This document shows, piece by piece, positions 2,426 through 48,331 of a stretch of 49,171 nucleotides of DNA. The first letter of the stretch is position 1. Each line of letters begins with the position of its first letter. The notes below the pieces were generated by a model. That model made no database searches. It worked only from the letters and a program-made list of their open reading frames with translations, and was not told the DNA's origin. The position numbers were made by a program, and so were the translations under genes. Source of the stretch: Bryobacterales bacterium (lineage in GTDB: Bacteria; Acidobacteriota; Terriglobia; Bryobacterales; Bryobacteraceae); contig PLEX01000092.1 in the NCBI GenBank assembly GCA_003136575.1, positions 1 to 49,171 of the forward strand, in the 5' to 3' direction.

Positions 2426-4338
2426 AGAAGGCCGCCGTGGGGCAGGCGGTTTCGCCTGCCGGTTCAAACCGGGCCAATTCAACCCGGGCGCTGGCGCTGT
2501 TCCTCTGCCTGACCCAACTTACCTGGGCGCAGCAAGTCGGCGCTCCGGCTGGTACGCCGGCGTCCATCGACCCCGTCCGTCCTGTCGGTCGAATCTATAA
2601 GCGGCCCTACGAACCGGCAACCATACCTCCCGTTCGTCTCGGCAACTCCGACCGTCTGCGCAGCCTCATCCGCGCCGGTAAGCTCTACCTGACGCCTCAT
2701 GACGCGATCGCGCTGGCTCTCGAAAACAACATCGATATCGAAGTCGCCCGCTACACGCCTATATCTCTGGCATGGCAACTCGAACGCTCGTCGGCCGGCG
2801 GCGCGTTGCCCGGCGTGCCGAGCGGCGCATCCCAGGCCAGTTCTGTCACCAACGGCCAGGGCGTCCTTGGCAGCCAGGCCGCCGCGGGCGTGGCCGGTGG
2901 CGGCGGCAGTAGTGGCGGCAACGCGGGCAACGCGACCATCTCTCAGGTTGGACCGGTTGTCCAGACGCTCGATCCCTCTATTCAGGAAACCTCCACCTTC
3001 GCTCACCGCACCGCCCTTCAGGCCAACGCCACGCAGAGCATCACTCAGGCGCTCGTTGACGATTCGCGCACTCACTCCGCCACTTACCAGGAGGGTTTTC
3101 TGACCGGCGGATCGGTGAGCCTCGGATTCAAAGACAGCTATCTCAATGAGAATTCGCCTACCGACGCGCTCAACCCCTCCGTGGCGCAGTCGCTTTCTCT
3201 GAGCATTCAGCACAATCTGTTTCAGGGACGCGGCATCGCGGTGAACGAACGCAACATCGTAGTGGCGCGGAACAATCTCGCGATGTCGGACCTTGGCTTC
3301 CGCACCACCGTCTCGCGCACGGTCGCCACTGTTCTGAACAGCTACTGGACGCTGGTGAACGACTACGAAGACCTCAAGTCGAAGCAGGAGGCGCTCGACA
3401 CTGCCCGCCAGTTCGTCGCGGAAAATCAGCGGCGCGTGGACCTGGGCGCGCTGGCTCCGATCGATCTGGTCACATCGAAGAGCCAACTTGCCACCGCGGT
3501 TCTCGATTTGGTTAATTCGCAGACCTCGCTTTCGCAGGATGAGCTGCAACTGAAGAATCTCATCAGCCGAACCGGCGCAATGGACCCGATTCTGACCGGT
3601 GTCTCCATCGTGCCGACCGGAACCGTAACAATTCCCGAAGTGGACGACACTCCGGCGATCAAGGTGCTCGTCGCCAAGTCATTCGCCAACCGAAGCGATC
3701 TGCAGTCGGATCAGGTCAGTCTGAAAAACACCGAAATCTCGAATATCGGCACCAGAAACGGATTGTTGCCCTCAGCCCAGGGATTCGCTCAATTGAGTAA
3801 CGCCGGCCTTGCCGGAAACGGCCACGTGGTGAACGGACAGACTCCATCTCTGGTCGGCGGCGCGGGAACCGCTCTCGCGCAGGTGTTCGGACGCGATTAT
3901 CCGACGGAAGCCATCGGAGTCTTCGCCAGTGCGGCGCTGCACAATCGGCAGGCCCAGGCCGATTTCGGCATCGACCAGTTGCAGTTACGGCAGTCGCAGC
4001 TGACCACCGGCGAAACGCGCAATCAGGTGGAAGTGGATGTTACCAATTCCGTGGTGGCGCTCCGTCAGGCGCGCGCGCGTTACGAAGCCGCTCACGCGAA
4101 CCTGAAGCTCCAGCAGGAATTGCTTGATGGCGAGCGGAAGAAGTTCGAGCTGGGCGAATCCACTTCATTCAACGTGGTTCAGCAGCAGCGCGATCTGGCA
4201 GCGGCGAGAGCATCGGAGTTGAGCGCGATCGTGACGTACCAAAGCGCGCGCATCAACCTCGATTCGATTACGGGTACGATCATCGAGTCGAGCGGCATTA
4301 CGCTTGCCGAGGCGAAGACCGGGCGCGTTTCCCAATAG
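2422..4338 (+). CDS. TolC-like outer membrane efflux protein (second of a tandem pair)
   Basis: This 638-residue paralogue of the preceding gene shares segments such as ALALENNIDIEV, LRQARARYEAAHA and QQQRDLAAARASEL at matching places. Start GTG 2422 overlaps the upstream stop (GTGA), suggesting translational coupling. The N terminus is odd: about 20 residues encoded partly by a palindromic repeat (2437-2460) precede the hydrophobic signal-peptide core (ALALFLCLTQLTWAQQ). This gives an unusually long n-region for a Sec signal. It also has a Gly/Ser/Ala-rich insert at about residues 120-175. The pair probably arose by local duplication. Two co-expressed OEP proteins could form hetero-oligomers or serve different pumps; neither is shown by the sequence. 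Confidence 0.85.
   Translation: MKKAAVGQAVSPAGSNRANSTRALALFLCLTQLTWAQQVGAPAGTPASIDPVRPVGRIYKRPYEPATIPPVRLGNSDRLRSLIRAGKLYLTPHDAIALALENNIDIEVARYTPISLAWQLERSSAGGALPGVPSGASQASSVTNGQGVLGSQAAAGVAGGGGSSGGNAGNATISQVGPVVQTLDPSIQETSTFAHRTALQANATQSITQALVDDSRTHSATYQEGFLTGGSVSLGFKDSYLNENSPTDALNPSVAQSLSLSIQHNLFQGRGIAVNERNIVVARNNLAMSDLGFRTTVSRTVATVLNSYWTLVNDYEDLKSKQEALDTARQFVAENQRRVDLGALAPIDLVTSKSQLATAVLDLVNSQTSLSQDELQLKNLISRTGAMDPILTGVSIVPTGTVTIPEVDDTPAIKVLVAKSFANRSDLQSDQVSLKNTEISNIGTRNGLLPSAQGFAQLSNAGLAGNGHVVNGQTPSLVGGAGTALAQVFGRDYPTEAIGVFASAALHNRQAQADFGIDQLQLRQSQLTTGETRNQVEVDVTNSVVALRQARARYEAAHANLKLQQELLDGERKKFELGESTSFNVVQQQRDLAAARASELSAIVTYQSARINLDSITGTIIESSGITLAEAKTGRVSQ
2437..2460 (+). repeat. REP-like palindromic element, copy 1 (inside a coding region)
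   Basis: The core GGCAGGCG-GTTT-CGCCTGCC is a perfect 8-bp stem with a 4-base loop (2441-2460). The reverse complement of 2437-2460 matches 18547-18570 at 21 of 24 positions, so this is a dispersed palindromic element. Here it sits just after the start codon of the second TolC-like gene and is read through in frame. Confidence 0.6.
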
Positions 4339-4548: not shown

Positions 4549-5106
4549 CTACTTCGCAGGCAACTCAAGCGACTTCTTCAGCCCCTCGTATCTGCTCTTG
4601 TGGTTCCCGTAATCCACGAAGTTCGCGATCAGGCTCGCCAGCTCGCGGGAGGTGTCGGAGTTCGCTTCGATGAAGTCCTTGTAGTCGCCCATCGTGAGCG
4701 GCCGGGACTGGTTCTTGTTGAGATATTCGATCGCGTTCGTGGTATCGTCGGCGATCTCTCTCATATACGGAATGATCCGGTCAATCGCGGTCGCCTGCCA
4801 GGCAGCGGCCTGGCCTTTCGCCGCGTTGAGGGCGGCGAGCGTCTTCCCGGCGGCGTTGATATCGTCCTTCATGCGGTTGATCTCCGCCGCGTGGCTCTGC
4901 CAGCTAAGGCTGGGCTGCCGCGTGTAGGACTCCAGCGTCGATGCGTCGACCGACACCGCATAAGACTGTCTCTTGGCTTCCGCGAGGAGCTTCGAGACCG
5001 ATTCCGACTCTTCGCCCGCCTTCAGGGAGGGCACCAGACCGGCGATGCCGCTTAACAGAAATGCGGTGAGGCTGGCCGTGCAGCGTTGCTTTAAAGTGGT
5101 TGTCAT
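4549..5106 (-). CDS. Secreted helical protein of unknown function
   Basis: A 185-residue protein with a signal peptide (basic MTTTLKQR, then ASLTAFLLSGIAGLVP). The mature part is predicted mostly helical, rich in Ala, Ser and Asp, with no Cys after the signal and no recognisable enzyme motif. The start is well supported: AAAGGAG lies about 6 bases upstream of the ATG. I do not recognise a named family; it resembles the many small exported unknowns of Acidobacteria. It follows another small secreted gene on the same strand, separated by about 190 bases holding a strong hairpin, so the two are probably separate transcription units. Confidence 0.7.
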   Translation of the reverse strand: MTTTLKQRCTASLTAFLLSGIAGLVPSLKAGEESESVSKLLAEAKRQSYAVSVDASTLESYTRQPSLSWQSHAAEINRMKDDINAAGKTLAALNAAKGQAAAWQATAIDRIIPYMREIADDTTNAIEYLNKNQSRPLTMGDYKDFIEANSDTSRELASLIANFVDYGNHKSRYEGLKKSLELPAK

Positions 5107-5228
5107 ATGGTCTCCTTTGTTTCTGCTTCTTGCTTGCGCCTCAGATCGCGATACGCCTGAAACCTATCCGGCCCGCCGTCCCCGACCTGATCCGAACGGT
5201 GGCTTTGGTGAAAGCGGCCAAAATGAAA

Positions 5229-5274
5229 CCGGCGGACACAGGTGGCGAGGGGTGGCGCCGAATGTGTCCGCCGG
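5229..5274 (-). terminator. 12-bp perfect inverted repeat downstream of the 5297-5722 gene
   Basis: CCGGCGGACACA (5229-5240) and TGTGTCCGCCGG (5263-5274) are perfect complements around a 22-base loop. On the minus strand the structure lies about 23 bases after the stop codon of the upstream secreted-protein gene. Probable terminator or mRNA 3' stabiliser; no T tract is visible. Confidence 0.5.
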
Positions 5275-5296
5275 CCAGGGGCGAGAGTGACAGCGG

Positions 5297-5722
5297 TTAG
5301 TCGACAATGGGCTTAATGTCGACGAAAACCGTCGCTATCTCCCGAGTCTGTTCCGACGCGATCGCTTCCTTTTCGGCTGCGCTGACGGGCAGATTGCCGA
5401 CCGTCATGCCCGGCGCGAACACGGAAGTCAGGAAGTACTGATTTCCTATGCGATGAAAGACCATGCGGGCGACGGAACTCTGGTTCGCCGCGGGCGCGGC
5501 AGACAGGTACACGCCTGTCCGATCGGCGCTGCAGTCGATGCGGACCACCTTCGAGACCGCGTCTCGGGCGATGGTGCATTCTCCCGCGTTGTGGCGTTGA
5601 TTATTCACCTGCCATGCGAACGGGATTTTCGCCTGCAGCCTTACTGTTTGCGCTTCAAGGCCGCCACCGATGGAACACAGGAGGACAGCCGACGTCATGA
5701 GGTTTGTCAAAATGTTTTTCAT
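5297..5722 (-). CDS. Small secreted protein of unknown function
   Basis: A 141-residue exported protein. I use the ATG at 5722, not the upstream in-frame start, because it gives a standard signal peptide (MKNILTNLMTSAVLLCSIGG, cleavage near LEAQ-TV) and is preceded by a purine-rich stretch. The mature N terminus, VRLQAKIPFAWQVNNQRHNA, matches the general pattern of a family of small secreted Acidobacterial proteins (a PFxF/W core followed by an L/HxAGxY/C-like motif), recognised from memory only. Two Cys in the mature part could form a disulfide. It is most likely a small beta-rich periplasmic or surface protein. Confidence 0.7.
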   Translation of the reverse strand: MKNILTNLMTSAVLLCSIGGGLEAQTVRLQAKIPFAWQVNNQRHNAGECTIARDAVSKVVRIDCSADRTGVYLSAAPAANQSSVARMVFHRIGNQYFLTSVFAPGMTVGNLPVSAAEKEAIASEQTREIATVFVDIKPIVD

Positions 5723-5924
5723 TTTCTTTTCTCTTTCCGTCCCCTGGGATTTTTTATCTCGTATCGGGAACGGCGGGGAAGGATGCACTGCCTCTGCCAA
5801 ACTGTGATCGCTGAAAACAAAGGCTTTACGCGTGGCAGGCGCAGTTTATTGAACCTTCAGGTGAATCCCGTAATCGAAAGGTGAGAACGGGCCTCCACAA
5901 CGCCGGAGTAACATTGGTCCGCGT

Positions 5925-5957
5925 TATAATCGAACCTTGAACAGGGTCCGCCTGTTC
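5925..5957 (+). promoter_or_regulatory. Candidate promoter -10 box and adjacent dyad
   Basis: A perfect TATAAT occurs at 5925-5930 in an otherwise GC-rich region, 80 bases before the gene at 6011. It is followed at 5939-5957 by GAACAGG-GTCCG-CCTGTTC, a perfect 7-bp inverted repeat overlapping the expected transcription start. No good -35 box is seen at standard spacing. The dyad could be an operator or a 5' mRNA stem. Confidence 0.4.
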
Positions 5958-6010
5958 TCATCACGGTCTCCCGCGGCGACGGGCCGATACAACCGAACAT
6001 TGGAGCTTAG

Positions 6011-8014
6011 GTGTCAACACTCTCATCCGGGATAGTGGCCAGTCTCGGTACGATCGGCTATTTCCTGCTGCTGTTCATCCCCGGCGCGTGGCTTACATTC
6101 GGCTTCGATCTGGACGATCTTCCGCTTTGGGCGCGATTCCTGACCGGCGCGATGCTCTCGCCCCTTGTCGCCAGCGCCGAGTTCTTCGCGTTTCGTCTGG
6201 CGGGCGTCCCGTTTGGGGCTACGGCTTGGCTGGTGTTCGCGGTCAATCTGCCGGCGATCTACGTGATCGGCAGGCGTTGTTCGCGATCGCGAATCGATTG
6301 GCGTGGGTGGCCCGTCGCGCTGGCGGTGGTTGGCTTGGCCGTGGCGTTCGTTCTTCCATTGTTTCTGGACACGGACCATCGGGTCTGGGCGCCTCACGGC
6401 TGGCTGCACGCCGACGCCGCGTACATGTTCGCGCGCGGAATGCTGCGCCCGGAAGATCCGGAAATGGCGGGACTGGTCCTCTCCTATCCGGTGTGGGCTC
6501 CGCTGGCGTTTCAGGCGATTATCAGCTGGCTGATAAACATGCCGCCTCTGACCAGCTACGTATTCCCCGACCTGATGTGTCTGATCGCGGTGTTTGGTTT
6601 CACCGCCGGCGTGGCAAAACGGCTGGGCGGCGGCAGGATTGCACAAATCGGATCGCTCATTTGGTTACCGGCCGGCACCACCCCGATGGTTTATCTGATG
6701 CTGAAGGTCGCGCCGCATTCAGCCGGGTACTGCTGCGATCTCCGATTCGAAGGAGAATGGATCAACAAGTTTCAGATCTTCAACGGCATGGCCATCGGTC
6801 TCGGTATGCTGATGACGCTGATCTATCTGCTGGTTCGATCTGACCAACGAAGCAAAGGCACACTCGCGGTCATCGGAGCGACGCTGTGTGGACTGGGTTT
6901 ACTGTATCCGCTGCTTTTGCCCGCCGCTTGTTCGGTTGTGGCAGCTTTGGCGCTCAGTCCGCTGATAAATCCGGAGACTCGAAAGTGGCCGGCGATTTCC
7001 CGCCAATGGTTGATTTGGTGCGGACTGATGGTGGTCGCGCTGTTGGCGACATACGCCGAGGTTCACATGCTCACGTCGCAACGGCTCACCAAAGTGGGCG
7101 CGGTTTCGATATCGGATTTTGCGTTTCTGCGGCAAAAAGTGAGGGCTGAACTGATCTCGACGTTCTTCTTTTTGGTGGGTCTGGGGCTGGTTTTCCGGTA
7201 CTGCTATCGCCACAGGCCACTGGCCACGCTGACTCTTGCCGGTGGCGCGGCGATGAATTACATTCTCTACGCGTTCGCACATATTCCGTACTACGACAAC
7301 GAATACAAGTATATTTTCGGCGTTACCTTGTGCCTTGCGCCGTTTCCCGCCATCGCCGTGGAGAGGATCTGGCGCGATTGGCCCCGAATGGCCGCGGTTC
7401 CGGTTCTGGCGGGGCTGGCCGCGTTTGTGATGGTAAGTTATGGCGCCTATTTGCACGACCCCGGGACAACTGCGTGGGTCCCCGAAAAGCCCGGGCCGTG
7501 GGCAAGGACTCCGCGCTACGATGCGAGCGAGTTCGCCATTCGCCTGGCTCCGGGCGAACCGATGGCCGGCATATGCGACGCGGTGCAGCGTACGACTCCG
7601 GCGGATACAGTCGTCCTTCTGAATAAGAGCGATGTCTACTATCCCGGCTACCTGGAACGGAGTCTCTACGTGCCGGCGGACAACAAGGATTACCGAGGCA
7701 CCAATAAATTCTCCGACGACATGGAAGGCGAGATTCGCGGCTACGGTTACGACCTTCTGAATCGCCGGCGAGCGGAATTGAAGACGCTCTTCGGTTCGGT
7801 GGATGCGGCCACGAGGCAGAGTGCGCTCGATCGGGCACTGGCGTTACATCGGCCGGTTGCCGTGATCACCGAGCCGGGGGACACCGCTCTGCGCGATTCT
7901 CTCATCGGCATGAGCACGCAACGGCTCTACTCGCAAAACGGCATCGATTTGTGGCTGCTCAATAACGGGGCTCCGCCGCAAAATAATGATAAGACCGGCT
8001 CCGCTAAGCAGTGA
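6011..8014 (+). CDS. Polytopic membrane protein, probable GT-C-type glycosyltransferase
   Basis: A 667-residue integral membrane protein with about eleven or more hydrophobic segments in the first 470 residues and a soluble C-terminal domain. The GTG start at 6011 follows GGAG by 5 bases. After the third or fourth helix it has a periplasmic loop with HADAAYMFARGMLRPEDPE, comparable to the acidic first loop of GT-C lipid-linked sugar transferases. The family call is by topology and neighbourhood, not by a clear signature. It overlaps the next gene, a more obvious GT39-like protein, by GTGA, so the two are probably co-translated and could act on the same polyprenyl-linked sugar. An O-antigen-type membrane protein is the main alternative. 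Confidence 0.55.
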   Translation: MSTLSSGIVASLGTIGYFLLLFIPGAWLTFGFDLDDLPLWARFLTGAMLSPLVASAEFFAFRLAGVPFGATAWLVFAVNLPAIYVIGRRCSRSRIDWRGWPVALAVVGLAVAFVLPLFLDTDHRVWAPHGWLHADAAYMFARGMLRPEDPEMAGLVLSYPVWAPLAFQAIISWLINMPPLTSYVFPDLMCLIAVFGFTAGVAKRLGGGRIAQIGSLIWLPAGTTPMVYLMLKVAPHSAGYCCDLRFEGEWINKFQIFNGMAIGLGMLMTLIYLLVRSDQRSKGTLAVIGATLCGLGLLYPLLLPAACSVVAALALSPLINPETRKWPAISRQWLIWCGLMVVALLATYAEVHMLTSQRLTKVGAVSISDFAFLRQKVRAELISTFFFLVGLGLVFRYCYRHRPLATLTLAGGAAMNYILYAFAHIPYYDNEYKYIFGVTLCLAPFPAIAVERIWRDWPRMAAVPVLAGLAAFVMVSYGAYLHDPGTTAWVPEKPGPWARTPRYDASEFAIRLAPGEPMAGICDAVQRTTPADTVVLLNKSDVYYPGYLERSLYVPADNKDYRGTNKFSDDMEGEIRGYGYDLLNRRRAELKTLFGSVDAATRQSALDRALALHRPVAVITEPGDTALRDSLIGMSTQRLYSQNGIDLWLLNNGAPPQNNDKTGSAKQ

Positions 8015-9543
8015 AGACGCCGGCTGAGCTGCAACGCGGACCCGTGACCGTCGGCACGGTCCGGGGATTTTTCGCGGTTCTCTTCGCCGTCACACTGCTG
8101 CTTCGGCTGTGCCATTCACGTCTGCTCTGGCCGGATGAAGACTACCACCTGGCCGCCGCGATCCAGCTGCTGCGCGGCAAGACGTTGTACCGCGATTTCT
8201 GGTACGACAAACCTCCGCTGAGCGCGTTGACATACGCTCTTGCCGGCGCACCAACGGGATGGGCGCTCCGGGTCTTCGATTCGGTCTGGATTCTGGCCAT
8301 TTGCGCGGTTGCGTTTCGGTTTGTGCGCGAGATGTTCGGCGATATAGAAGCTCTCGCCGCCGCCGGCCTGATTGCGTTCTTTCTGAATTTCGATCTGCCC
8401 GGCGGGATCATCCCGATCGCGCCGGATTTCTTCATGGTGCTGCCGCATCTGCTGGCGCTGTGGTGCGTGTGGCGGGCGAAGCCGCTGGCCGCGGGCGGGT
8501 GGTGCGGGATCGCGTTTCTGTTCAACCCGAAAGGCTTGTTTGTGCTGTTGGCATGTAGCCTGCTGGTGGGCGACAGGTGGACGATACGACAAAATGCCGA
8601 CGACGATTCCGAACCCCTTGCGCGCCGGGTGTTGTTGGGCGTCCTGCCGCTGCTGGCAGGTTTTCTGATTTCGAACGCCGTCGCCATGGCGACTCTGTCC
8701 GCACAGGGCGCGGCGGGCGCCTATGTCGACCAGGTCTGGAAATGGGGGCTGGTGTACGCAAAGATTCCGCCCGTGGCATCGTCGGTCGGCGACGGCCTGA
8801 GGCGCAGCCTGGACTGGTGTGGATTCCATGCGGCGCTGGTGCTCGGTTGCGTTTGGTGCTGGTGGCGGGGGCGGTCGCGCGCGACGCGATTTCTCGCTGT
8901 GTGGGCCGTCGTATCGTTCGTGGCCGTCGCGTCGGGCGCGAGGTTTTCGAATCGCTATTTTCTGCAGTTACTGCCGGTGCTCGCGATTGCGGCGGCTCAT
9001 GGCTCGGCGGTTGCATTTGCGGATGTTGCGCGCCGAAGGATCGTCATGGCAATCGCGATCGTTGCGCTTGCGGTGCCTCTGGCGCGGTTCGGCACGCGCT
9101 ACGCGATTCTCGCGCGGGATCTCGCGACTGGGCGCGAAACCAGGTGGAGCGACGCGGTGCTCGACCGCGACAGCCGCGTTGTCAGCGCATGGATCTCCGC
9201 CCACAAGCGCGAAGGCGACACGCTTTTTGTCTGGGGTTACCGGCCCGACGTTTTCTCGTACACCCGGATGCCGTTTGCATCGGCGTTCTGGGATTCGCAG
9301 CCGTTGACGGGCGTTCCGGCCGACCGGCATTTGACGGAGAGCATTTCGCTGATTCCGGAGTGGGCGGCCGCCAACCGGCGCGTGTTGGTTGAGTCGCGGC
9401 CTGACTTTATTGTGGACGGGTTGAGCCGGCTGAATCCAAAGCTCGCGATGAGCGGGTTTCCGGAGTTGCGGGAATGGATCGGATCGTACCGGCTGGCGCA
9501 GACGACCGAACTCAGCCTGATTTACGAACGCGCGGGACGATGA
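8011..9543 (+). CDS. GT-C (GT39/ArnT-like) membrane glycosyltransferase
   Basis: A 510-residue membrane protein starting at a GTG that overlaps the previous stop. After the first helix it shows DEDYHLAAAIQLLRGKTLYR followed by DFWYDKPPL. The acidic pair, the G-x-x-LY-x-D motif and KPP are hallmarks of PMT/ArnT-type enzymes that move a sugar from a polyprenyl phosphate carrier to a periplasmic acceptor. About nine to ten further helices follow, then a soluble C-terminal region with FVWGYRPDVFSYT, a motif often seen in these proteins. Substrate and acceptor cannot be told. It is convergent with the 9557-10687 gene, with only 13 bases between stops. Confidence 0.75.
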   Translation: MKTPAELQRGPVTVGTVRGFFAVLFAVTLLLRLCHSRLLWPDEDYHLAAAIQLLRGKTLYRDFWYDKPPLSALTYALAGAPTGWALRVFDSVWILAICAVAFRFVREMFGDIEALAAAGLIAFFLNFDLPGGIIPIAPDFFMVLPHLLALWCVWRAKPLAAGGWCGIAFLFNPKGLFVLLACSLLVGDRWTIRQNADDDSEPLARRVLLGVLPLLAGFLISNAVAMATLSAQGAAGAYVDQVWKWGLVYAKIPPVASSVGDGLRRSLDWCGFHAALVLGCVWCWWRGRSRATRFLAVWAVVSFVAVASGARFSNRYFLQLLPVLAIAAAHGSAVAFADVARRRIVMAIAIVALAVPLARFGTRYAILARDLATGRETRWSDAVLDRDSRVVSAWISAHKREGDTLFVWGYRPDVFSYTRMPFASAFWDSQPLTGVPADRHLTESISLIPEWAAANRRVLVESRPDFIVDGLSRLNPKLAMSGFPELREWIGSYRLAQTTELSLIYERAGR

Positions 9544-43891: not shown

Positions 43892-44491
43892 ATGTCGGCT
43901 ATACCTGAGCAGAGCCCGGAGCTACCGGTGACGCGACTGCTGATCGACTGGAAGAGCGGTAACAAGGAAGCGCTCGACCTTTTGATTCCCATCGTCTATC
44001 GCGAACTCCGCGCGCTCGCGGACCGACAGCTTCGCGACGAACGCGCCGCCGCAACCATACAGCCCACCGCTCTGGTGCACGAAGCCTATGTGAGACTCGT
44101 CGCGCAAAACCTGCCCGATTGGGAAAGCCGCGCGCATTTCTTTGGCGTGGCCGCGCACCTGATGCGTCAGGTTCTGGTGGACCACGCGCGCCGCCGCCGA
44201 AGCGGCAAACGCGGCGGAGGCGTGGAGAAAACATCGATTGAAGATACGGTGAGCTTCGCCCCGGCGAAGGGACGGGACATCGAAGACCTGGACGACGCGC
44301 TGAATGCGCTCACGGAATTCGACGAACGCAAGGCGAAGGTGATCGAACTTCGGTTTTTTGGTGGCTTCAATCTTGAGGAAACGGCGCAGGCGCTGGGGAT
44401 CTCGACGGCCACCGTGACGCGGGAGCAGCGCATGGCCGAGGCATGGCTGCACCGCGAAATGGCGCGGGAAAAAGGAGCGTCCCGGGATTAA
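43892..44491 (+). CDS. ECF-type RNA polymerase sigma factor (TIGR02999-like)
   Basis: A 199-residue sigma-70 family regulator. Region 2 shows LDLLIPIVYRELRALADRQL, then TIQPTALVHEAYVRLVAQNL and FFGVAAHLMRQVLVDHARRR. Region 4 has VIELRFFGGFNLEETAQALG and ISTATVTREQRMAEAWL, a helix-turn-helix. This wording is that of the ECF subgroup regularly found next to Ser/Thr kinases in Acidobacteria and Planctomycetes. The stop overlaps the kinase start (TAATG), so sigma factor and kinase are made together and the kinase probably controls sigma activity, in place of an anti-sigma factor. Initiation appears leaderless. Confidence 0.9.
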   Translation: MSAIPEQSPELPVTRLLIDWKSGNKEALDLLIPIVYRELRALADRQLRDERAAATIQPTALVHEAYVRLVAQNLPDWESRAHFFGVAAHLMRQVLVDHARRRRSGKRGGGVEKTSIEDTVSFAPAKGRDIEDLDDALNALTEFDERKAKVIELRFFGGFNLEETAQALGISTATVTREQRMAEAWLHREMAREKGASRD

Positions 44492-47298
44492 TGGCGCCGC
44501 AGGCACAACCATGGGCCAAAATCGAGGAAATCTTCCATCAGGCGCTGGAACAGGATCCGGAAACGCGTGACGCGTGGCTGGACAACGCCTGCGGGGGCGA
44601 CGCGAGTCTGCGCTCGGAAGTAGCGGCGCTGCTGGAGAGCGACGCCGCCGCCCGCGAGGGCTTCGTAGCCGGCAATGTGCAGCGGGCGGTCCGGAACCTG
44701 GCCGACACTCAAACGGGTGAAAGGCCGCGAATTGAAGGCAGGATGATCGGGCAATGGCGTCTGCTTCGCGAGATTGGCCACGGAGGCATGGGCTCGGTCT
44801 ACCTGGTCGAGAGGGCTGATCAGCAGTACGAGTCGCAGGCGGCGATAAAGCTGGTTCGCCAAGGCCTCGATACGGATTTCATCCTCCGGCGTTTTCGCCG
44901 CGAACGCCAAATCCTGGCCCGGCTGGACCATCCGAACATCACAAAAATGTTCGACGGGGGTACCACCGAAGACGGCATCCCTTATCTCGTGATGGAGTTC
45001 ATCGACGGGCTCTGGATCACGAAATACGCGGAGAAGCACGGGCTCAGCACGGAGCAGCGGGTCGGACTGTTGCTGCCCGTTTGCTCCGCCTTGGCTTATG
45101 CGCACCGTAATTTCATCGTCCATCGCGATATGAAGCCCGGCAATATTCTGATCGACGCAACCGGTATTCCGAAGCTGCTCGATTTCGGGATCTCGAAATT
45201 GCTGCTTACCGACCGGCCGGAGCTTCCGAACACACAGGGCGGGGCCATGATGACGCCCGATTACGCGAGTCCCGAACAGATTCTCGGAGAACCGGTGACG
45301 ATCGCGTCGGACGTTTATTCGCTCGGCGCGGTGTTGTACGAACTTCTGACCGGCGTGAGACCGCATCGCATCGACCAGTGCACACCTCTGGCTTTGGAGC
45401 GCGCCATCTGCCTCGATCCCGTGCGCGTGCCAAGCGCAGCAGTGGGCGAAAACCGGACGCTTGCGCGGCGGCTTAGGGGCGATCTCGACAATATCGTGCT
45501 GCGCGCCATGCAGAAGGAACCCGAGCGCCGTTACGCCTCCGTGGAACAGCTTGCAGACGATTTGCGTCGCTATCTGGACCACCGTCCGGTACTCGCGAGG
45601 CCGGATTCGGTGACGTACCGGATCGGCCGTTTCATCCGCAGGAATCGCGTCGCAGTCGCGCTGGGAGCGGCAGTAGCGGTGGCGTTGCTCGCCGGCGCAA
45701 CGGTGGCAATTCGCGAAGAGCGAATCGCTCACGAACGCTTCGAGGACGTCCGGAAACTTGCCACCACGTTCCTGTTCGGCGTGGAGGAAGCCGCTCGTCC
45801 GCTGCCCGGTTCGCTGCGGCTGCGGCAACAAATTGCCCGCACCGGAGTCGAGTACCTGACGAACCTGTCCCGCGGTTCCACCGGCGACTGGGCGCTGAAG
45901 CGGGAGCTGGCCGACGCATGGCTTCGCATCGGCGTGGTGCAGGGCGGGCAGGAATCTTCCAACCTCGGCGATCTTCCTGCCGCGCTGGCCAGTTTTTCCA
46001 GCGCGGGCAAGCTGCTGGACGAGGTTTTGGAGCACGATCCCGGAGACGCACAGGCCTCATATAGCCGGGTAGCCGTCCTTTACGAAACAAGCGATCTGGA
46101 GCGAGTCAGTGGGCATTACAAGGAGGCCGCGGACGCCGCCGAATCGGGTCTCCGGATCGCCGAATCGCTGATGGCCAGGGTTCCAAAGAATATCGATGAT
46201 CCGAAAAATCTCGATCTCGTTCGTTACGCCGGCCTGCTGCATCTCGATCTGGTCCGCGTCCGGCAGCAGAAGGGTGAACTGGAACAGGGCCAACTCGAAG
46301 CCGAAAGCGGCGCGCGCCTGTTGCGGCGAGTGGCGGACGCCAGGCCGGAAGACCGCGACGTGCAATTGAGCCTGGCGGATCTGGATGCGCGAATGGGTTC
46401 GCTGCAGGCATCTCTCGGCCATCCGGCGGATGCGCTGGCAAGCTATCGGAGCGAGGCGGAGATTCTGGAGGCGTTGCGGGCGCGCCTTCCCAACGACACG
46501 CGGTCGAGACGAGAACTGATGTTCGCATACGGGCACATCGGCGATACTCTGGGCAATCCCGAGTACGACAATCTGGGCGATTTGCCGGGAGCTTTCGCGG
46601 CCTACGAGAAGATGGCGGAACAAGCGAAATTCCTGAGCGACGCCGATCCGGCGGACGCGCGGGCTCTCGGCGACTATGGAATTGCGCTGTTGCGGCTCGG
46701 CCTGGCCACGCCCCCGGCCGGCACACTCCGGCGCGAAACGCTCGAGCGCTCGCTGGACCTGCTGACCCGCGCCGAAACGCGTGTACCGCAGAGCCGCATG
46801 ATCGCCACTCATAAGGTCTGGGCGGAAACCGAATTGGGCGACTACCAGTCCGCGATCACGACCGGCGAAAGGATCCTGAAAGGCGCACCGGACGACGCTC
46901 TGACGTTTCGGCGAATGGAAGCGGCGGTCGGCGCGCTCGCACGGGAACAAGCCCGGAACGGCCGTCGGGCGGATGCGCTGGCGACGCTCGACCACTCGCT
47001 CGCGTGGGCGAAGAAGTTCGACGACACCGCGCCGCCCGCGTCGATCGCGATCCGGCCCGGCGTCGCGCAGGCATGGCAGACCGCGGGAGCGGTATACGCG
47101 ATGCTCGCCGACGGGGAAGGCGGGCAACGCGCGGCCGAAGACCGGGAGACGGCGCTCGCGTGGTACCGGCGGTCGCTCGATCAGTGGAAAAAACTCGAAG
47201 GGCAGAAGGGATTTCTTCCTCTGTATGCGGCCGCGATGGAGGCCGCCGGGCGGGCGATGGCCACCATCGGCGCTCAGGATAAAGGGGTACGTCGATGA
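44491..47298 (+). CDS. Transmembrane Ser/Thr protein kinase with TPR-rich sensor half
   Basis: A 935-residue Hanks-type kinase. ATG 44491 overlaps the sigma-factor stop (TAATG); an earlier in-frame start at 44443 lies inside the sigma gene. Order: a helical N-terminal segment (about 1-80), kinase domain with GHGGMGSVY (96-104), the ATP-binding Lys of AIKLV (120), catalytic HRDMKPGNIL (211-220) and DFGIS (231-235), activation segment MMTPDYASPEQI, then one transmembrane helix (about 385-407). The C-terminal half is helical repeats of TPR type (DLPAALASFSSAGKLLDEVL, HPADALASYRSEAEILEAL), outside the membrane if topology is standard. HRDM replaces the usual HRDL. This architecture is common in Acidobacteria. 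The stop overlaps a globin gene (ATGA). Confidence 0.92.
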   Translation: MAPQAQPWAKIEEIFHQALEQDPETRDAWLDNACGGDASLRSEVAALLESDAAAREGFVAGNVQRAVRNLADTQTGERPRIEGRMIGQWRLLREIGHGGMGSVYLVERADQQYESQAAIKLVRQGLDTDFILRRFRRERQILARLDHPNITKMFDGGTTEDGIPYLVMEFIDGLWITKYAEKHGLSTEQRVGLLLPVCSALAYAHRNFIVHRDMKPGNILIDATGIPKLLDFGISKLLLTDRPELPNTQGGAMMTPDYASPEQILGEPVTIASDVYSLGAVLYELLTGVRPHRIDQCTPLALERAICLDPVRVPSAAVGENRTLARRLRGDLDNIVLRAMQKEPERRYASVEQLADDLRRYLDHRPVLARPDSVTYRIGRFIRRNRVAVALGAAVAVALLAGATVAIREERIAHERFEDVRKLATTFLFGVEEAARPLPGSLRLRQQIARTGVEYLTNLSRGSTGDWALKRELADAWLRIGVVQGGQESSNLGDLPAALASFSSAGKLLDEVLEHDPGDAQASYSRVAVLYETSDLERVSGHYKEAADAAESGLRIAESLMARVPKNIDDPKNLDLVRYAGLLHLDLVRVRQQKGELEQGQLEAESGARLLRRVADARPEDRDVQLSLADLDARMGSLQASLGHPADALASYRSEAEILEALRARLPNDTRSRRELMFAYGHIGDTLGNPEYDNLGDLPGAFAAYEKMAEQAKFLSDADPADARALGDYGIALLRLGLATPPAGTLRRETLERSLDLLTRAETRVPQSRMIATHKVWAETELGDYQSAITTGERILKGAPDDALTFRRMEAAVGALAREQARNGRRADALATLDHSLAWAKKFDDTAPPASIAIRPGVAQAWQTAGAVYAMLADGEGGQRAAEDRETALAWYRRSLDQWKKLEGQKGFLPLYAAAMEAAGRAMATIGAQDKGVRR

Positions 47299-47735
47299 AC
47301 CTTACGCCGCGACAGAAGACGCTTGTACGGGAAAGCTTTGAATCGGTTCGCGAGTACTCGGACTCCGTGGTGGTGCTCTTCTACGGCCGGCTCTTTGAGA
47401 TTGCGCCAGAGGTGCGCGGCCTGTTCCACATCGAAATCCGCGAGCAGGCGCGCAAGCTGATGGACATGCTGACAGCTCTTGTAGAAGCGCTGGATCGATT
47501 CGGCGCGCTGCGGCCTGACTTGGCCGAACTGGGCCGCCGTCATGGCGAATACAAGGTGGTGCCCGCTCATTACGACGCACTGGTGAGCGCGTTGATGTGG
47601 GCGTATGGCCATGCCCTCGGTCTGGAATTCGATCGCGAGACCCGGTTGGCGTGGGAACAACTGCTGCACGCCGTCTCGGCGGTGATGATCGAAGGCGCGG
47701 CTACCGCCCAGGCGAGTCCGCGCGTAAGCGAGTAG
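47295..47735 (+). CDS. Single-domain globin
   Basis: A 146-residue haem protein of the bacterial haemoglobin/flavohaemoglobin N-domain type. VVLFYGRLFEIAPEVRGLF has Tyr30 at the expected distal B10 position. LGRRHGEYKVVPAHYDALVS has His83 as proximal F8 ligand, with the Y-x-V-x-x-x-H/Y pattern of Vgb and Hmp. There is no reductase domain. Such globins bind O2 or NO and act in sensing, NO detoxification or O2 delivery. Its ATG overlaps the kinase stop, so globin, kinase and sigma factor form a translationally linked unit. This suggests that haem-ligand status and the kinase/sigma pathway are connected; that link is inference. Confidence 0.88.
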   Translation: MNLTPRQKTLVRESFESVREYSDSVVVLFYGRLFEIAPEVRGLFHIEIREQARKLMDMLTALVEALDRFGALRPDLAELGRRHGEYKVVPAHYDALVSALMWAYGHALGLEFDRETRLAWEQLLHAVSAVMIEGAATAQASPRVSE

Positions 47736-47810: not shown

Positions 47811-47875
47811 GTTTTCCTCGTCTTTGCGCCCGTATGAGTGGGAAGCGAAGTTTCCCGCTAAGAAAAGAGGAAAAC
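47811..47875 (+). promoter_or_regulatory. Structured 5' leader that can hide the ribosome binding site of the peptide gene
   Basis: GTTTTCCTC (47811-47819) is a perfect complement of GAGGAAAAC (47867-47875). The right arm contains the Shine-Dalgarno sequence for ATG 47880, so pairing would block initiation. Inside the loop, GGGAA (47840-47844) can pair with TTCCC (47852-47856). This looks like a translational switch (thermosensor, ligand- or protein-responsive); the signal is unknown and no riboswitch class is recognised. Confidence 0.45.
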
Positions 47876-47879
47876 ACAA

Positions 47880-48182
47880 ATGGACACGAAGAATCTGAAC
47901 GAAGCTCAACAGACGCAAAACGAAGCTGCGGAACTGAATGCAGGCGAACTGGATGCGATCGTCGGCGGCGCGCTGAACGCCTGCTTGAAGACTGATGTCG
48001 CGGCGACGCAAATTCACCCGTCGCTCACGGCCAACCACAACGAAACGGTCTACGTACGCTCGGCGACGTGCGACGACGAAGAACTGAACTCGGCGGAACT
48101 GGACACGATCACGGGCGGCATGTCTCAGGAGAACGCGCATCTTATGCCAAGTTTCGTTATGGACCCGGTCAAAAAGCAGTAG
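47880..48182 (+). CDS. Small precursor-like protein with two double-glycine leader motifs
   Basis: A 100-residue protein with a good ribosome binding site (AGAGGA). The first 30 residues are an acidic, amphipathic leader ending AGELDAIVGG-AL, the consensus double-glycine cleavage motif of bacteriocin and RiPP leaders (ELD-x-V/I-x-GG). A 37-residue segment with two Cys (ALNACLKTDVAATQ... RSATCDDEEL) follows, then a second motif NSAELDTITGG and a 20-residue tail (MSQENAHLMPSFVMDPVKKQ). Two GG sites in one chain are unusual and could release two peptides. No C39 peptidase, ABC exporter, lanthipeptide synthetase or radical SAM gene is visible, so any processing machinery lies elsewhere. Confidence 0.6.
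   Translation: MDTKNLNEAQQTQNEAAELNAGELDAIVGGALNACLKTDVAATQIHPSLTANHNETVYVRSATCDDEELNSAELDTITGGMSQENAHLMPSFVMDPVKKQ
47952..47972 (+). repeat. 21-bp exact direct repeat shared by the two peptide genes (second copy 48272-48292)
   Basis: GATGCGATCGTCGGCGGCGC plus a final G is identical at 47952-47972 and 48272-48292 and encodes the DAIVGG-A leader end in both genes. Exact identity at DNA level points to recent duplication or strong constraint on the cleavage motif. Confidence 0.8.
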
Positions 48183-48214
48183 CGAGAAACCTTAACGAAT
48201 TGAAAGGAGAATAT

Positions 48215-48331
48215 ATGAAAACGAAAAACAGCGGGACCAGGTCCGTTTCGGAACTGGACGCAGTTCAATCCGATGCGATCGTCGGCGGCGCGCCGGACGC
48301 GATCGAATACAAGGAAGGCGGCAACGCGTGA
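48215..48331 (+). CDS. 38-residue double-glycine leader peptide gene
   Basis: Starts at ATG 48215 with an excellent AAAGGAG 6 bases upstream. The product begins MKTKNSGTRSVSELDAVQSD, continues AIVGG and ends with a 13-residue tail rich in Glu, Ala and Gly (APDAIEYKEGGNA). The leader is homologous to that of the gene 33 bases upstream (MDTKN... ELDAIVGG), sharing a 21-bp identical segment. The short tail lacks Cys, Ser and Thr, so it is not a lanthipeptide core; it could be an unmodified exported peptide or a decaying copy. It is followed by about 200 bases without a gene. Confidence 0.6.
   Translation: MKTKNSGTRSVSELDAVQSDAIVGGAPDAIEYKEGGNA

What the first reader, a model, noticed from the sequence alone, without database searches (positions are those of the whole stretch)
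47880..48331. Two adjacent genes with three double-glycine leader motifs and no nearby maturation genes
Seen: AGELDAIVGG, NSAELDTITGG and AVQSDAIVGG occur in two short, well-initiated genes; the first gene carries two motifs, bracketing a 37-residue segment with two Cys. Known: this motif ends leaders of class II bacteriocins and many RiPP precursors, cleaved by C39 peptidase/ABC exporters. Inference: a polyprotein-like precursor that could yield two peptides, plus a third small peptide, controlled next to a sigma/kinase/globin operon. No processing enzyme is in the window, so this would be an orphan or trans-processed family.
Basis: partly seen in the sequence, partly recalled or inferred. 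Interest (0 to 1): 0.75.

Follow-up and report, generated by a model that had tools for sequence, protein, structure and literature searches.

The report
Two-leader secreted-peptide precursor, exporter elsewhere
An Acidobacteria genome carries a small gene whose product looks like two export-tagged peptides joined in one chain, apparently cut and secreted by a transporter encoded elsewhere in the genome; a close relative has the same design stretched to about a dozen repeats beside that transporter.

Summary
The 100-aa ORF (47880-48182) carries two canonical double-glycine leader motifs (23.6 and 28.1 bits on a matrix of leaders from other genomes); the 38-aa ORF (48215-48331) has a much weaker one (10.1 bits, window noise level) but shares 22 identical bases with the first. 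Both look coding.

"No maturation enzyme" is true of the window, not of the genome. One NHLM-type export operon (C39-peptidase ABC, second ABC, HlyD) lies on another contig, with Q/C/H/D active-site residues kept and its own small peptide bearing the same leader. Across 121 family genomes leader peptides track this exporter (5 of 6 against 0 of 113, training genomes left out).

In a congener the exporter is flanked by polyproteins of 8 and about 12 tandem [leader - GG/GA - xx - NHNQ] units; in seven of these the leader is under strong purifying selection. The window genome has seven NHNQ units on two contigs; the 100-aa ORF, with NHNE, reads as a diverged two-unit member.

Best reading: tandem leader-core precursors cut and exported in trans. 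Cleavage at both sites, products and function are unproven. New variant of a known kind; no Pfam/NCBIfam model above cut-off, no paper in the searches named.

The parts
47866..47871 (+). Shine-Dalgarno-like AGAGGA of ORF1
   Evidence: sequence
47880..48182 (+). ORF1: 100-aa precursor with two leader motifs (two-unit precursor)
47928..47969 (+). leader motif 1, AELNAGELDAIVGG (L-12, E-8, L-7, I-4, GG)
   Evidence: 23.6 bits on a matrix from other genomes
   Evidence: sequence
48033..48044 (+). NHNE tetrapeptide, counterpart of NHNQ in the paralogues
   Evidence: 2 of 1000 core shuffles reach the HMM score
48078..48119 (+). leader motif 2, EELNSAELDTITGG
   Evidence: 28.1 bits, best 14-mer of the window
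48120..48179 (+). predicted core 2, MSQENAHLMPSFVMDPVKKQ (20 aa)
   Evidence: sequence
48203..48209 (+). Shine-Dalgarno-like AAAGGAG of ORF2
   Evidence: sequence
48215..48331 (+). ORF2: 38-aa peptide, probable short paralogue of ORF1
   Evidence: codon use; 22-nt exact match with ORF1
48248..48289 (+). weak leader motif SELDAVQSDAIVGG of ORF2
   Evidence: 10.1 bits, not above window noise
43892..44491 (+). ECF sigma factor, TIGR02999 (context; link to the peptides not shown)
44443..47298 (+). Ser/Thr protein kinase with TPR (context)
47295..47735 (+). single-domain globin (context)

Best explanation
ORF1 and ORF2 encode precursors of small secreted peptides. By analogy with LahT, each leader ends in a helix that docks by L-12, L-7 and I/V-4 into the groove of the C39 domain of the NHLM-type transporter encoded on contig C168. 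The chain is cut after Gly-Gly and passed out through the ABC1/ABC2-HlyD export complex. ORF1 is a two-unit precursor: a cut after the first GG and a second after the internal GG would give a 50-residue peptide (two Cys, NHN motif, second leader as its tail) and a 20-residue peptide. It is a diverged, dispersed member of a family in which [leader - GG or GA - short variable stretch - NHNQ - acidic linker] units are repeated 1 to about 12 times per gene. Shown: ORFs, motifs, exporter in the genome, co-occurrence, tandem relatives, selection on leader and NHNQ in one polyprotein. Inferred: that this exporter handles these peptides, that both sites are cut, that the peptides are not further modified, and that they act outside the cell (bacteriocin-like or signal).
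For: Motifs: 23.6 and 28.1 bits against a matrix from other genomes. Exporter: PF03412 has 1 match in the own genome, in a gene set that passes the NCBIfam cut-offs of TIGR03794, TIGR03796 and TIGR03797, next to a TIGR03896-like protein below its cut-off. Its C39 domain is closest among solved structures to LahT (6mpz, 161 bits), and the residues aligned to Gln21, Cys27, His101 and Asp117 are all kept. A small ORF just upstream of the exporter genes has the same leader type, IGPADADEIAGG, 24.0 bits. Co-occurrence in 121 family genomes: leader match at E<=0.05 in 8; NHLM ABC1 over its cut-off in 6, plus G077 with the gene split over two contig ends. Without the two genomes used for the leader profile: 5 of 6 against 0 of 113, p=3e-8; with E<=0.1, 5 of 13 against 0 of 106, p=7e-6. 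Genus, own genome left out: 3 of 3 leader genomes have C39 against 2 of 15, p=0.012. Tandem design: in congener G001 two polyproteins flank the exporter (21 NHNQ units in that region). The own genome has 7 NHNQ units on C105 and C79. Selection in 7 equal-length units of polyprotein B: dN/dS 0.026 in the leader, 0.063 in NHNQTAASDE, 0.118 in the linker. Link of ORF1 to the family: an HMM from 28 units without the window gives it 20.4 bits (best domain); shuffles of its first core average 15.2 and 2 of 1000 reach 20.4. Leader rules and P' tolerance of LahT: PMC6363468, passages.
Against: No direct homologue of ORF1, so conservation of its own GG sites is untested. Core 2 has no NHN. The NHN in ORF1 comes 21 residues after GG, against 3-7 in 26 of 28 units and 12 in the other two. 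Most of ORF1's score on the unit HMM comes from the leader. ORF2's motif is weak. G143 has a clear leader peptide but no C39 match; G008 and G016 have C39 but no leader match at E<=0.05. G069 has a C39-ABC below the NHLM cut-off and no leader match at E<=0.1. Only 6 of 12 exporter loci read here had a GG-leader ORF beside them by a pattern scan that also asked for a ribosome-binding site; several of the other six are cut by contig ends. Any C39, as opposed to the NHLM type, correlates weakly with the leader (p=0.026). Several tandem genes are interrupted: an in-frame TAA in polyprotein B of G001, a fourth unit out of frame after a C-run on C105, and start and GG frames that differ on C79; decay and assembly error are not distinguished. 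In polyprotein A a rough estimate from four partly misregistered segments gave dN/dS 0.18. No expression or peptide data.
Confidence: 0.7

Rival explanations
1. Single-cut precursor: the exporter cuts ORF1 only at the first GG, and the internal motif is a relic of a fusion or of a lost unit, or serves only as a second docking helix. One 70-residue peptide is secreted. (A variant of the best explanation, not exclusive of its other parts.)
For: Nothing shows that an internal site is used. Core 2 lacks NHN. Some tandem genes are frame-disrupted, as expected of decaying units.
Against: The internal motif scores higher than the first (28.1 against 23.6 bits), and in the seven polyprotein units tested the internal leader is under strong purifying selection (dN/dS 0.026).
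Confidence: 0.3
2. RiPP: the cores are chemically modified (for example lanthionine, heterocycle or radical-SAM) by an unlinked enzyme before export, as NHLP/Nif11 precursors often are.
For: NHLM exporters often go with precursors beside modification enzymes (PMC2887384, passages). Weak sub-threshold similarity to lantibiotic and other RiPP models.
Against: None of the five exporter-locus proteins scanned in G000 (the other ORFs of C168:1-12000 were only looked over, one scanned) and none of ten flanking proteins scanned in G001, G062, G073, G075 and G100 is a clear modification enzyme; one in G100 has a borderline LANC_like match. The best stretches lie over the leader. The whole genome was not searched for LanM, YcaO or SPASM proteins.
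Confidence: 0.2
3. Not export precursors: ORF1 and ORF2 are small cytoplasmic or regulatory proteins, or decayed gene fragments, in which the GG motif is a leftover.
For: No orthologues found; no promoter or terminator match; ORF2 motif at noise level.
Against: Two high-scoring motifs at exact spacing, good ribosome-binding sites, coding-like codon use, and co-occurrence with the exporter.
Confidence: 0.12
4. A C39 exporter is really a neighbour, beyond the contig end or in an unassembled gap, so the peptides are not dispersed.
For: 242-contig, 83%-complete assembly.
Against: C131 runs 8.6 kb past ORF2 without an exporter. Leader peptides on C79, C105, C184 and C198 show that dispersal is real in this genome.
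Confidence: 0.05

Closest known systems
Double-glycine leader peptides of C39/PCAT (AMS) exporters, e.g. the Lah/LahT system
   Same: L-12, E-8, L-7, V/I-4 and GG or GA; small precursors with variable cores; C39 domain closest to LahT with the active-site residues kept
   Different: Two or more leader-core units in one chain; exporter on another contig; no match to Nif11-type leader models
NHLP / Nif11 precursors with the three-gene NHLM exporter (Haft 2010, PMC2887384)
   Same: Same exporter families TIGR03794/03796/03797, similar end of the leader, co-occurrence with the exporter
   Different: ORF1 and ORF2 match neither the nitrile-hydratase-like nor the Nif11 leader models; short leaders; no clear modification enzyme among the neighbours scanned
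CTB family bacteriocins of cyanobacteria (NF038167)
   Same: Leader region resembles it (19.5 bits; cut-off 32)
   Different: Below cut-off; single unit as far as I recall (not checked)
Multi-core precursors (microviridin AMdnA, cyanobactins, cyclotides; PMC5934393, passages)
   Same: Several products in one chain
   Different: Those repeat cores behind one leader or with enzyme signals (partly recalled); here the exporter leader itself is repeated before each core

Membership tests
Double-glycine leader precursor of a C39/PCAT exporter | L-12, (E-8) L-7, V/I-4 and GG/GA/GS before the core | tested here: met
   ORF1 motifs 1 and 2: 23.6 and 28.1 bits; rule from PMC6363468 (passages)
Double-glycine leader precursor of a C39/PCAT exporter | same, for ORF2 | tested here: inconclusive
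   10.1 bits; Ser at -7, Gln at -8
Double-glycine leader precursor of a C39/PCAT exporter | a C39 exporter in the genome with intact active site | tested here: met
Double-glycine leader precursor of a C39/PCAT exporter | cleavage after GG during export | not testable with these tools
   needs protein chemistry
NHLP (nitrile hydratase-like leader) | NHase-alpha-like leader, NCBIfam model | tested here: not met
   no such model among the matches listed at E<=10 (HMMER's filters drop most matches above 0.1)
Nif11-type precursor | Nif11-like leader, NCBIfam model | tested here: not met
   no such model among the matches listed at E<=10 (same caveat)
CTB family bacteriocin NF038167 | score over cut-off 32 | tested here: not met
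   19.5 bits for ORF1
Type-A lantibiotic PF04604 | score over cut-off 21.7 | tested here: not met
   20.4 bits, two stretches, the best at residues 11-38
NHNQ tandem leader-core family (described here) | leader unit followed by NHN[QE] | tested here: met
   unit 1 of ORF1 only: 20.4 bits, 2 of 1000 core shuffles as high
NHNQ tandem leader-core family (described here) | NHNQ 3-7 residues after the GG/GA, in every unit | tested here: not met
   21 residues in unit 1, NHN absent in unit 2; 26 of the 28 training units have 3-7, two have 12

The most novel reading that the evidence does not exclude
A C39/NHLM exporter that works on polyproteins: every unit carries its own copy of the export/cleavage leader, so one chain is threaded and cut again and again. 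It releases a set of peptides with a constant NHNQ motif and a diversified N-terminus (3-4 residues between cleavage site and NHNQ in that polyprotein, dN/dS about 2 over four codons). The window gene is a dispersed two-unit version served in trans.
Probability: 0.42. Interest if true: 0.75.

Novelty: new variant of a known kind. Interest (0 to 1): 0.56.

Why it matters
C39 exporters are normally pictured as cutting one leader from one peptide. Repeated leader-core units beside such an exporter would mean that it can process a chain several times, a directly testable question about the transport cycle. It also gives a rule for finding precursors that annotation misses: tandem GG/GA leaders and a short fixed motif, scattered over the genome of NHLM-bearing Acidobacteria, a group whose secreted peptides are little studied (my impression).

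Tried and rejected
A relative search with the full ORF1 protein gave nothing convincing: 14 of 61 genomes at E<=1; outside the own genome the best E was 0.18, mostly in long frames (only L007 was read). Of the two further own-genome hits, C79 (L019) was kept and C107 (L021) judged chance. The genome-contig scan found no relative. A second genome-contig scan, with the NHNQ polyproteins and two narrow patterns, found one locus, the congener's own record CAIQWJ010000036.1. Pfam and NCBIfam hits of the polyproteins are sub-threshold; UDI and GH94 matches were dismissed as composition. PF05402 (PqqD) in the genome led to a lasso-peptide cluster, not to these genes. Literature: 'LNPQPLPP' 0 papers; 'NHNQ' 89 papers, of which I saw 20 listed, all unrelated; six phrases on two or multiple GG motifs, 5 papers, of which PMC3132745 reports one 79-aa sactibiotic-like peptide with two GG motifs (passage) and PMC7595303 concerns several separate peptides (passages); phrases on repeated leaders, 0; broader searches, of which 5 of 5, 20 of 45, 20 of 201, 20 of 52 and 20 of 41 papers were listed. 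PMC2887384, PMC6363468, PMC5934393, PMC8939145, PMC3140520, PMC3132745 and PMC7595303 were seen as passages, the rest as listings with the start of the abstract; no whole paper was read. Structure prediction was not used.

Full report
Observation. Both short genes exist as described, with good ribosome-binding sites and coding-like codon use. ORF1 carries two double-glycine motifs that are the two best-scoring 14-mers of the window against a matrix made from 34 leaders of other genomes (28.1 and 23.6 bits); 100 simulated windows never exceeded 15.6 bits. ORF2's motif (10.1 bits) is no better than a match inside the kinase frame (10.8), so the claim of three motifs should be read as two strong and one weak. 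The 34 leaders were mostly located with a profile that included the window's motifs, a mild circularity. ORF2 shares a 22-nt exact stretch with ORF1 around the GG codons, which suggests a short paralogue.

Is there a processing enzyme? Not in the window, and not in the four ORFs scanned of the 7.8 kb of contig C131 beyond it. The genome has one match to the C39 peptidase family, on contig C168. It lies in an NHLM set: cyclic-nucleotide-binding protein (TIGR03896-like, below cut-off), HlyD (TIGR03794), C39-ABC (TIGR03796), ABC without peptidase (TIGR03797), then a SLATT-domain protein (below cut-off). The C39 domain aligns best to LahT (6mpz, E 1.9e-46); by the numbering in PMC6363468 (passages) the residues aligned to Gln21, Cys27, His101 and Asp117 are all kept. 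Just upstream of the set is a 44-residue ORF ending ...IGPADADEIAGGRLDPYKN, 24.0 bits on the same matrix. The exporter therefore has a neighbour peptide with the same kind of leader as ORF1.

Do the leaders and the exporter go together? A leader profile from 14 segments of G000 and G077 was run over 121 genomes of the family: 92 have a match at the loose limit of E<=3, but 8 at E<=0.05 (G000, G077, G062, G073, G075, G087, G100, G143). NHLM ABC1 passes its cut-off in 6 (G000, G062, G073, G075, G087, G100), and in G077 it is split over two contig ends. Leaving out the two training genomes the table is 5 of 6 against 0 of 113 (p=3e-8). The limit of 0.05 was chosen after seeing the list; at 0.1 it is 5 of 13 against 0 of 106 (p=7e-6). 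A C39 domain of any kind (46 of 121 genomes) correlates only weakly (p=0.026), so it is the NHLM type that matters. In the genus, C39 occurs in 6 of 19 genomes and leader matches at E<=0.05 in 4; without the own genome, 3 of 3 leader genomes have C39 against 2 of 15 (p=0.012). Exceptions: G143 (leader, no C39 match), G008 and G016 (C39, no leader match at that limit). Beside the exporter a GG-leader ORF was found in 6 of 12 exporter loci read (G000, G001, G062, G073, G075, G100; that of G100 is only 30 residues with a GTG start) and not in G008, G009, G013, G016, G077, G087, several of which are cut by contig ends. G009 and G013 have theirs elsewhere; that of G013 reads like a nitrile-hydratase-type leader ending TSELSDVELEAVAGG (read from DNA, not scanned).

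Tandem units. Other leader peptides of the own genome led to the main point. A gene on C105 (685-1203) contains three in-frame units [leader - VAGG or VAGAG - NHNQN] and a fourth out of frame behind a run of seven C. A second C105 gene (3427-3789) has one unit and was found at E 5e-6 by a profile that did not include it. C79 has two units. With a further small unit, 21 NHNQ units lie around the exporter, and one more on another contig. In seven equal-length units of the second polyprotein dN/dS is 0.026 in the leader, 0.063 in NHNQTAASDE, 0.118 in the linker and about 2.1 in the four codons after the cleavage site. The last figure rests on very few sites. The TPR proteins next to the NHNQ genes of C79 (own) and C36 (G001) are 59% identical over 316 residues, so I take these as corresponding loci; in G001 this locus adjoins the exporter, in the own genome it is on another contig.

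Where ORF1 fits. Unit 1 of ORF1 has NHNE. An HMM from 28 units that excludes the window scores it 20.4 bits; shuffles of the first core with the leader kept average 15.2, and 2 of 1000 reach 20.4. A bare NHN[QE] arises in 0.16% of shuffles of the 70 residues after the first GG. Against this, the distance from GG is 21 residues, while 26 of 28 units have 3-7 and two have 12, and unit 2 has no NHN. I take ORF1 as a diverged two-unit member, with moderate confidence. A 55-residue peptide of G077 (L099:2720-2887) also shows two leader-like segments in one chain, but each scores only weakly on the profile (E 0.1 and 0.86; sequence).

Mechanism. LahT recognises about the last 13 residues of the leader, places V-4, L-7 and L-12 in a hydrophobic groove, accepts GG, GA and GS, and tolerates diverse cores (PMC6363468, passages). 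ORF1 offers that recognition element twice. The simplest reading is two cuts by the C168 transporter, giving peptides of 50 and 20 residues; whether the second leader stays on the first peptide is unknown. Haft and colleagues saw the same correlation of leader and three-gene exporter for NHLP precursors and argued that the exporter, rather than the modifying enzyme, conserves the leader (PMC2887384, passages). No clear modifying enzyme was seen among the neighbours scanned, so unmodified peptides are the default guess, not a result.

Genomic setting. The peptides follow an ECF sigma / kinase-TPR / globin operon. In G006, which has no C39 match, the kinase-globin pair is kept (globin 71% identical) and no GG-leader ORF was found by pattern in the fetched 16 kb, so the peptides are an addition in this lineage or a loss in the other. 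The globin of G003 lies at a contig end and is uninformative. The C79 locus also has a TIGR02999 sigma factor directly upstream and a kinase beyond. This is suggestive of common control, but the number of such sigma factors in the genome was not counted.

Novelty. Leader and exporter are known. The NHNQ polyproteins matched no Pfam or NCBIfam model above cut-off. Repeating the whole leader-core unit before each core, next to and apart from a C39 exporter, turned up in none of the paper searches named in Tried and rejected, most of which list only part of their hits; one 79-aa sactibiotic-like peptide with two GG motifs is in print (PMC3132745, passage). Hence: a new variant of a known kind.

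Noticed in passing
L035 (G000:C38:30000-41249), 4729-9263: Likely lasso-peptide cluster in the same genome: PqqD-type B1 (8931-9263, -), Transglut_core3 B2 (4729-5229, -), asparagine-synthase C (6805-8646, -) and a precursor-like ORF 8683-8865 (-) with YKKPAKMVVLGGISTVVQTSVFAG (the lasso assignment is from recall of the class).
   Followed up: partly
L003:1441-1584 (C198, -) and L028:1480-1611 (C184, -): Two small GG-leader peptides with the same core start, GG-LNPQPLPP; no paper in the library holds this string.
   Followed up: partly
L140:8951-10534 (G001 C36), L048:685-1301 (C105), L019:1296-1653 (C79): Tandem NHNQ genes are interrupted: one in-frame TAA, one unit out of frame behind a C7 run, one start frame that differs from the GG frame. 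Decay, assembly error or recoding not distinguished.
   Followed up: no
L048:630-690, L048:3370-3430, L019:1250-1300: NHNQ genes share a 5' region with GGATCAACC inside an inverted repeat and GCCC(A/G)AAAGGAGGGC, which would put the ribosome-binding site in a hairpin loop; seen by eye, not folded.
   Followed up: no
L048:1-600 and 3740-4330: Long, nearly identical DNA stretches around the two NHNQ genes of C105, seen by eye (not aligned): probably a recent duplication of the neighbourhood.
   Followed up: no
L140 polyprotein B, four codons after each GA site: Variable residues between cleavage site and NHNQ (dN/dS about 2.1, few sites) against a nearly invariant leader.
   Followed up: partly
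L106:2861-3037 and 4995-5180; L104:2906-3091 (G077): GG peptides with a longer leader of another type (LTIRLTEDQQKQI...ATGKSI.ELN and similar), a possible separate leader family.
   Followed up: no
L162:4435-7724 (G000:C131, beyond the window): Adjacent FRG-domain and AIPR-family proteins on the - strand, families I recall from phage-defence contexts; not tested.
   Followed up: no
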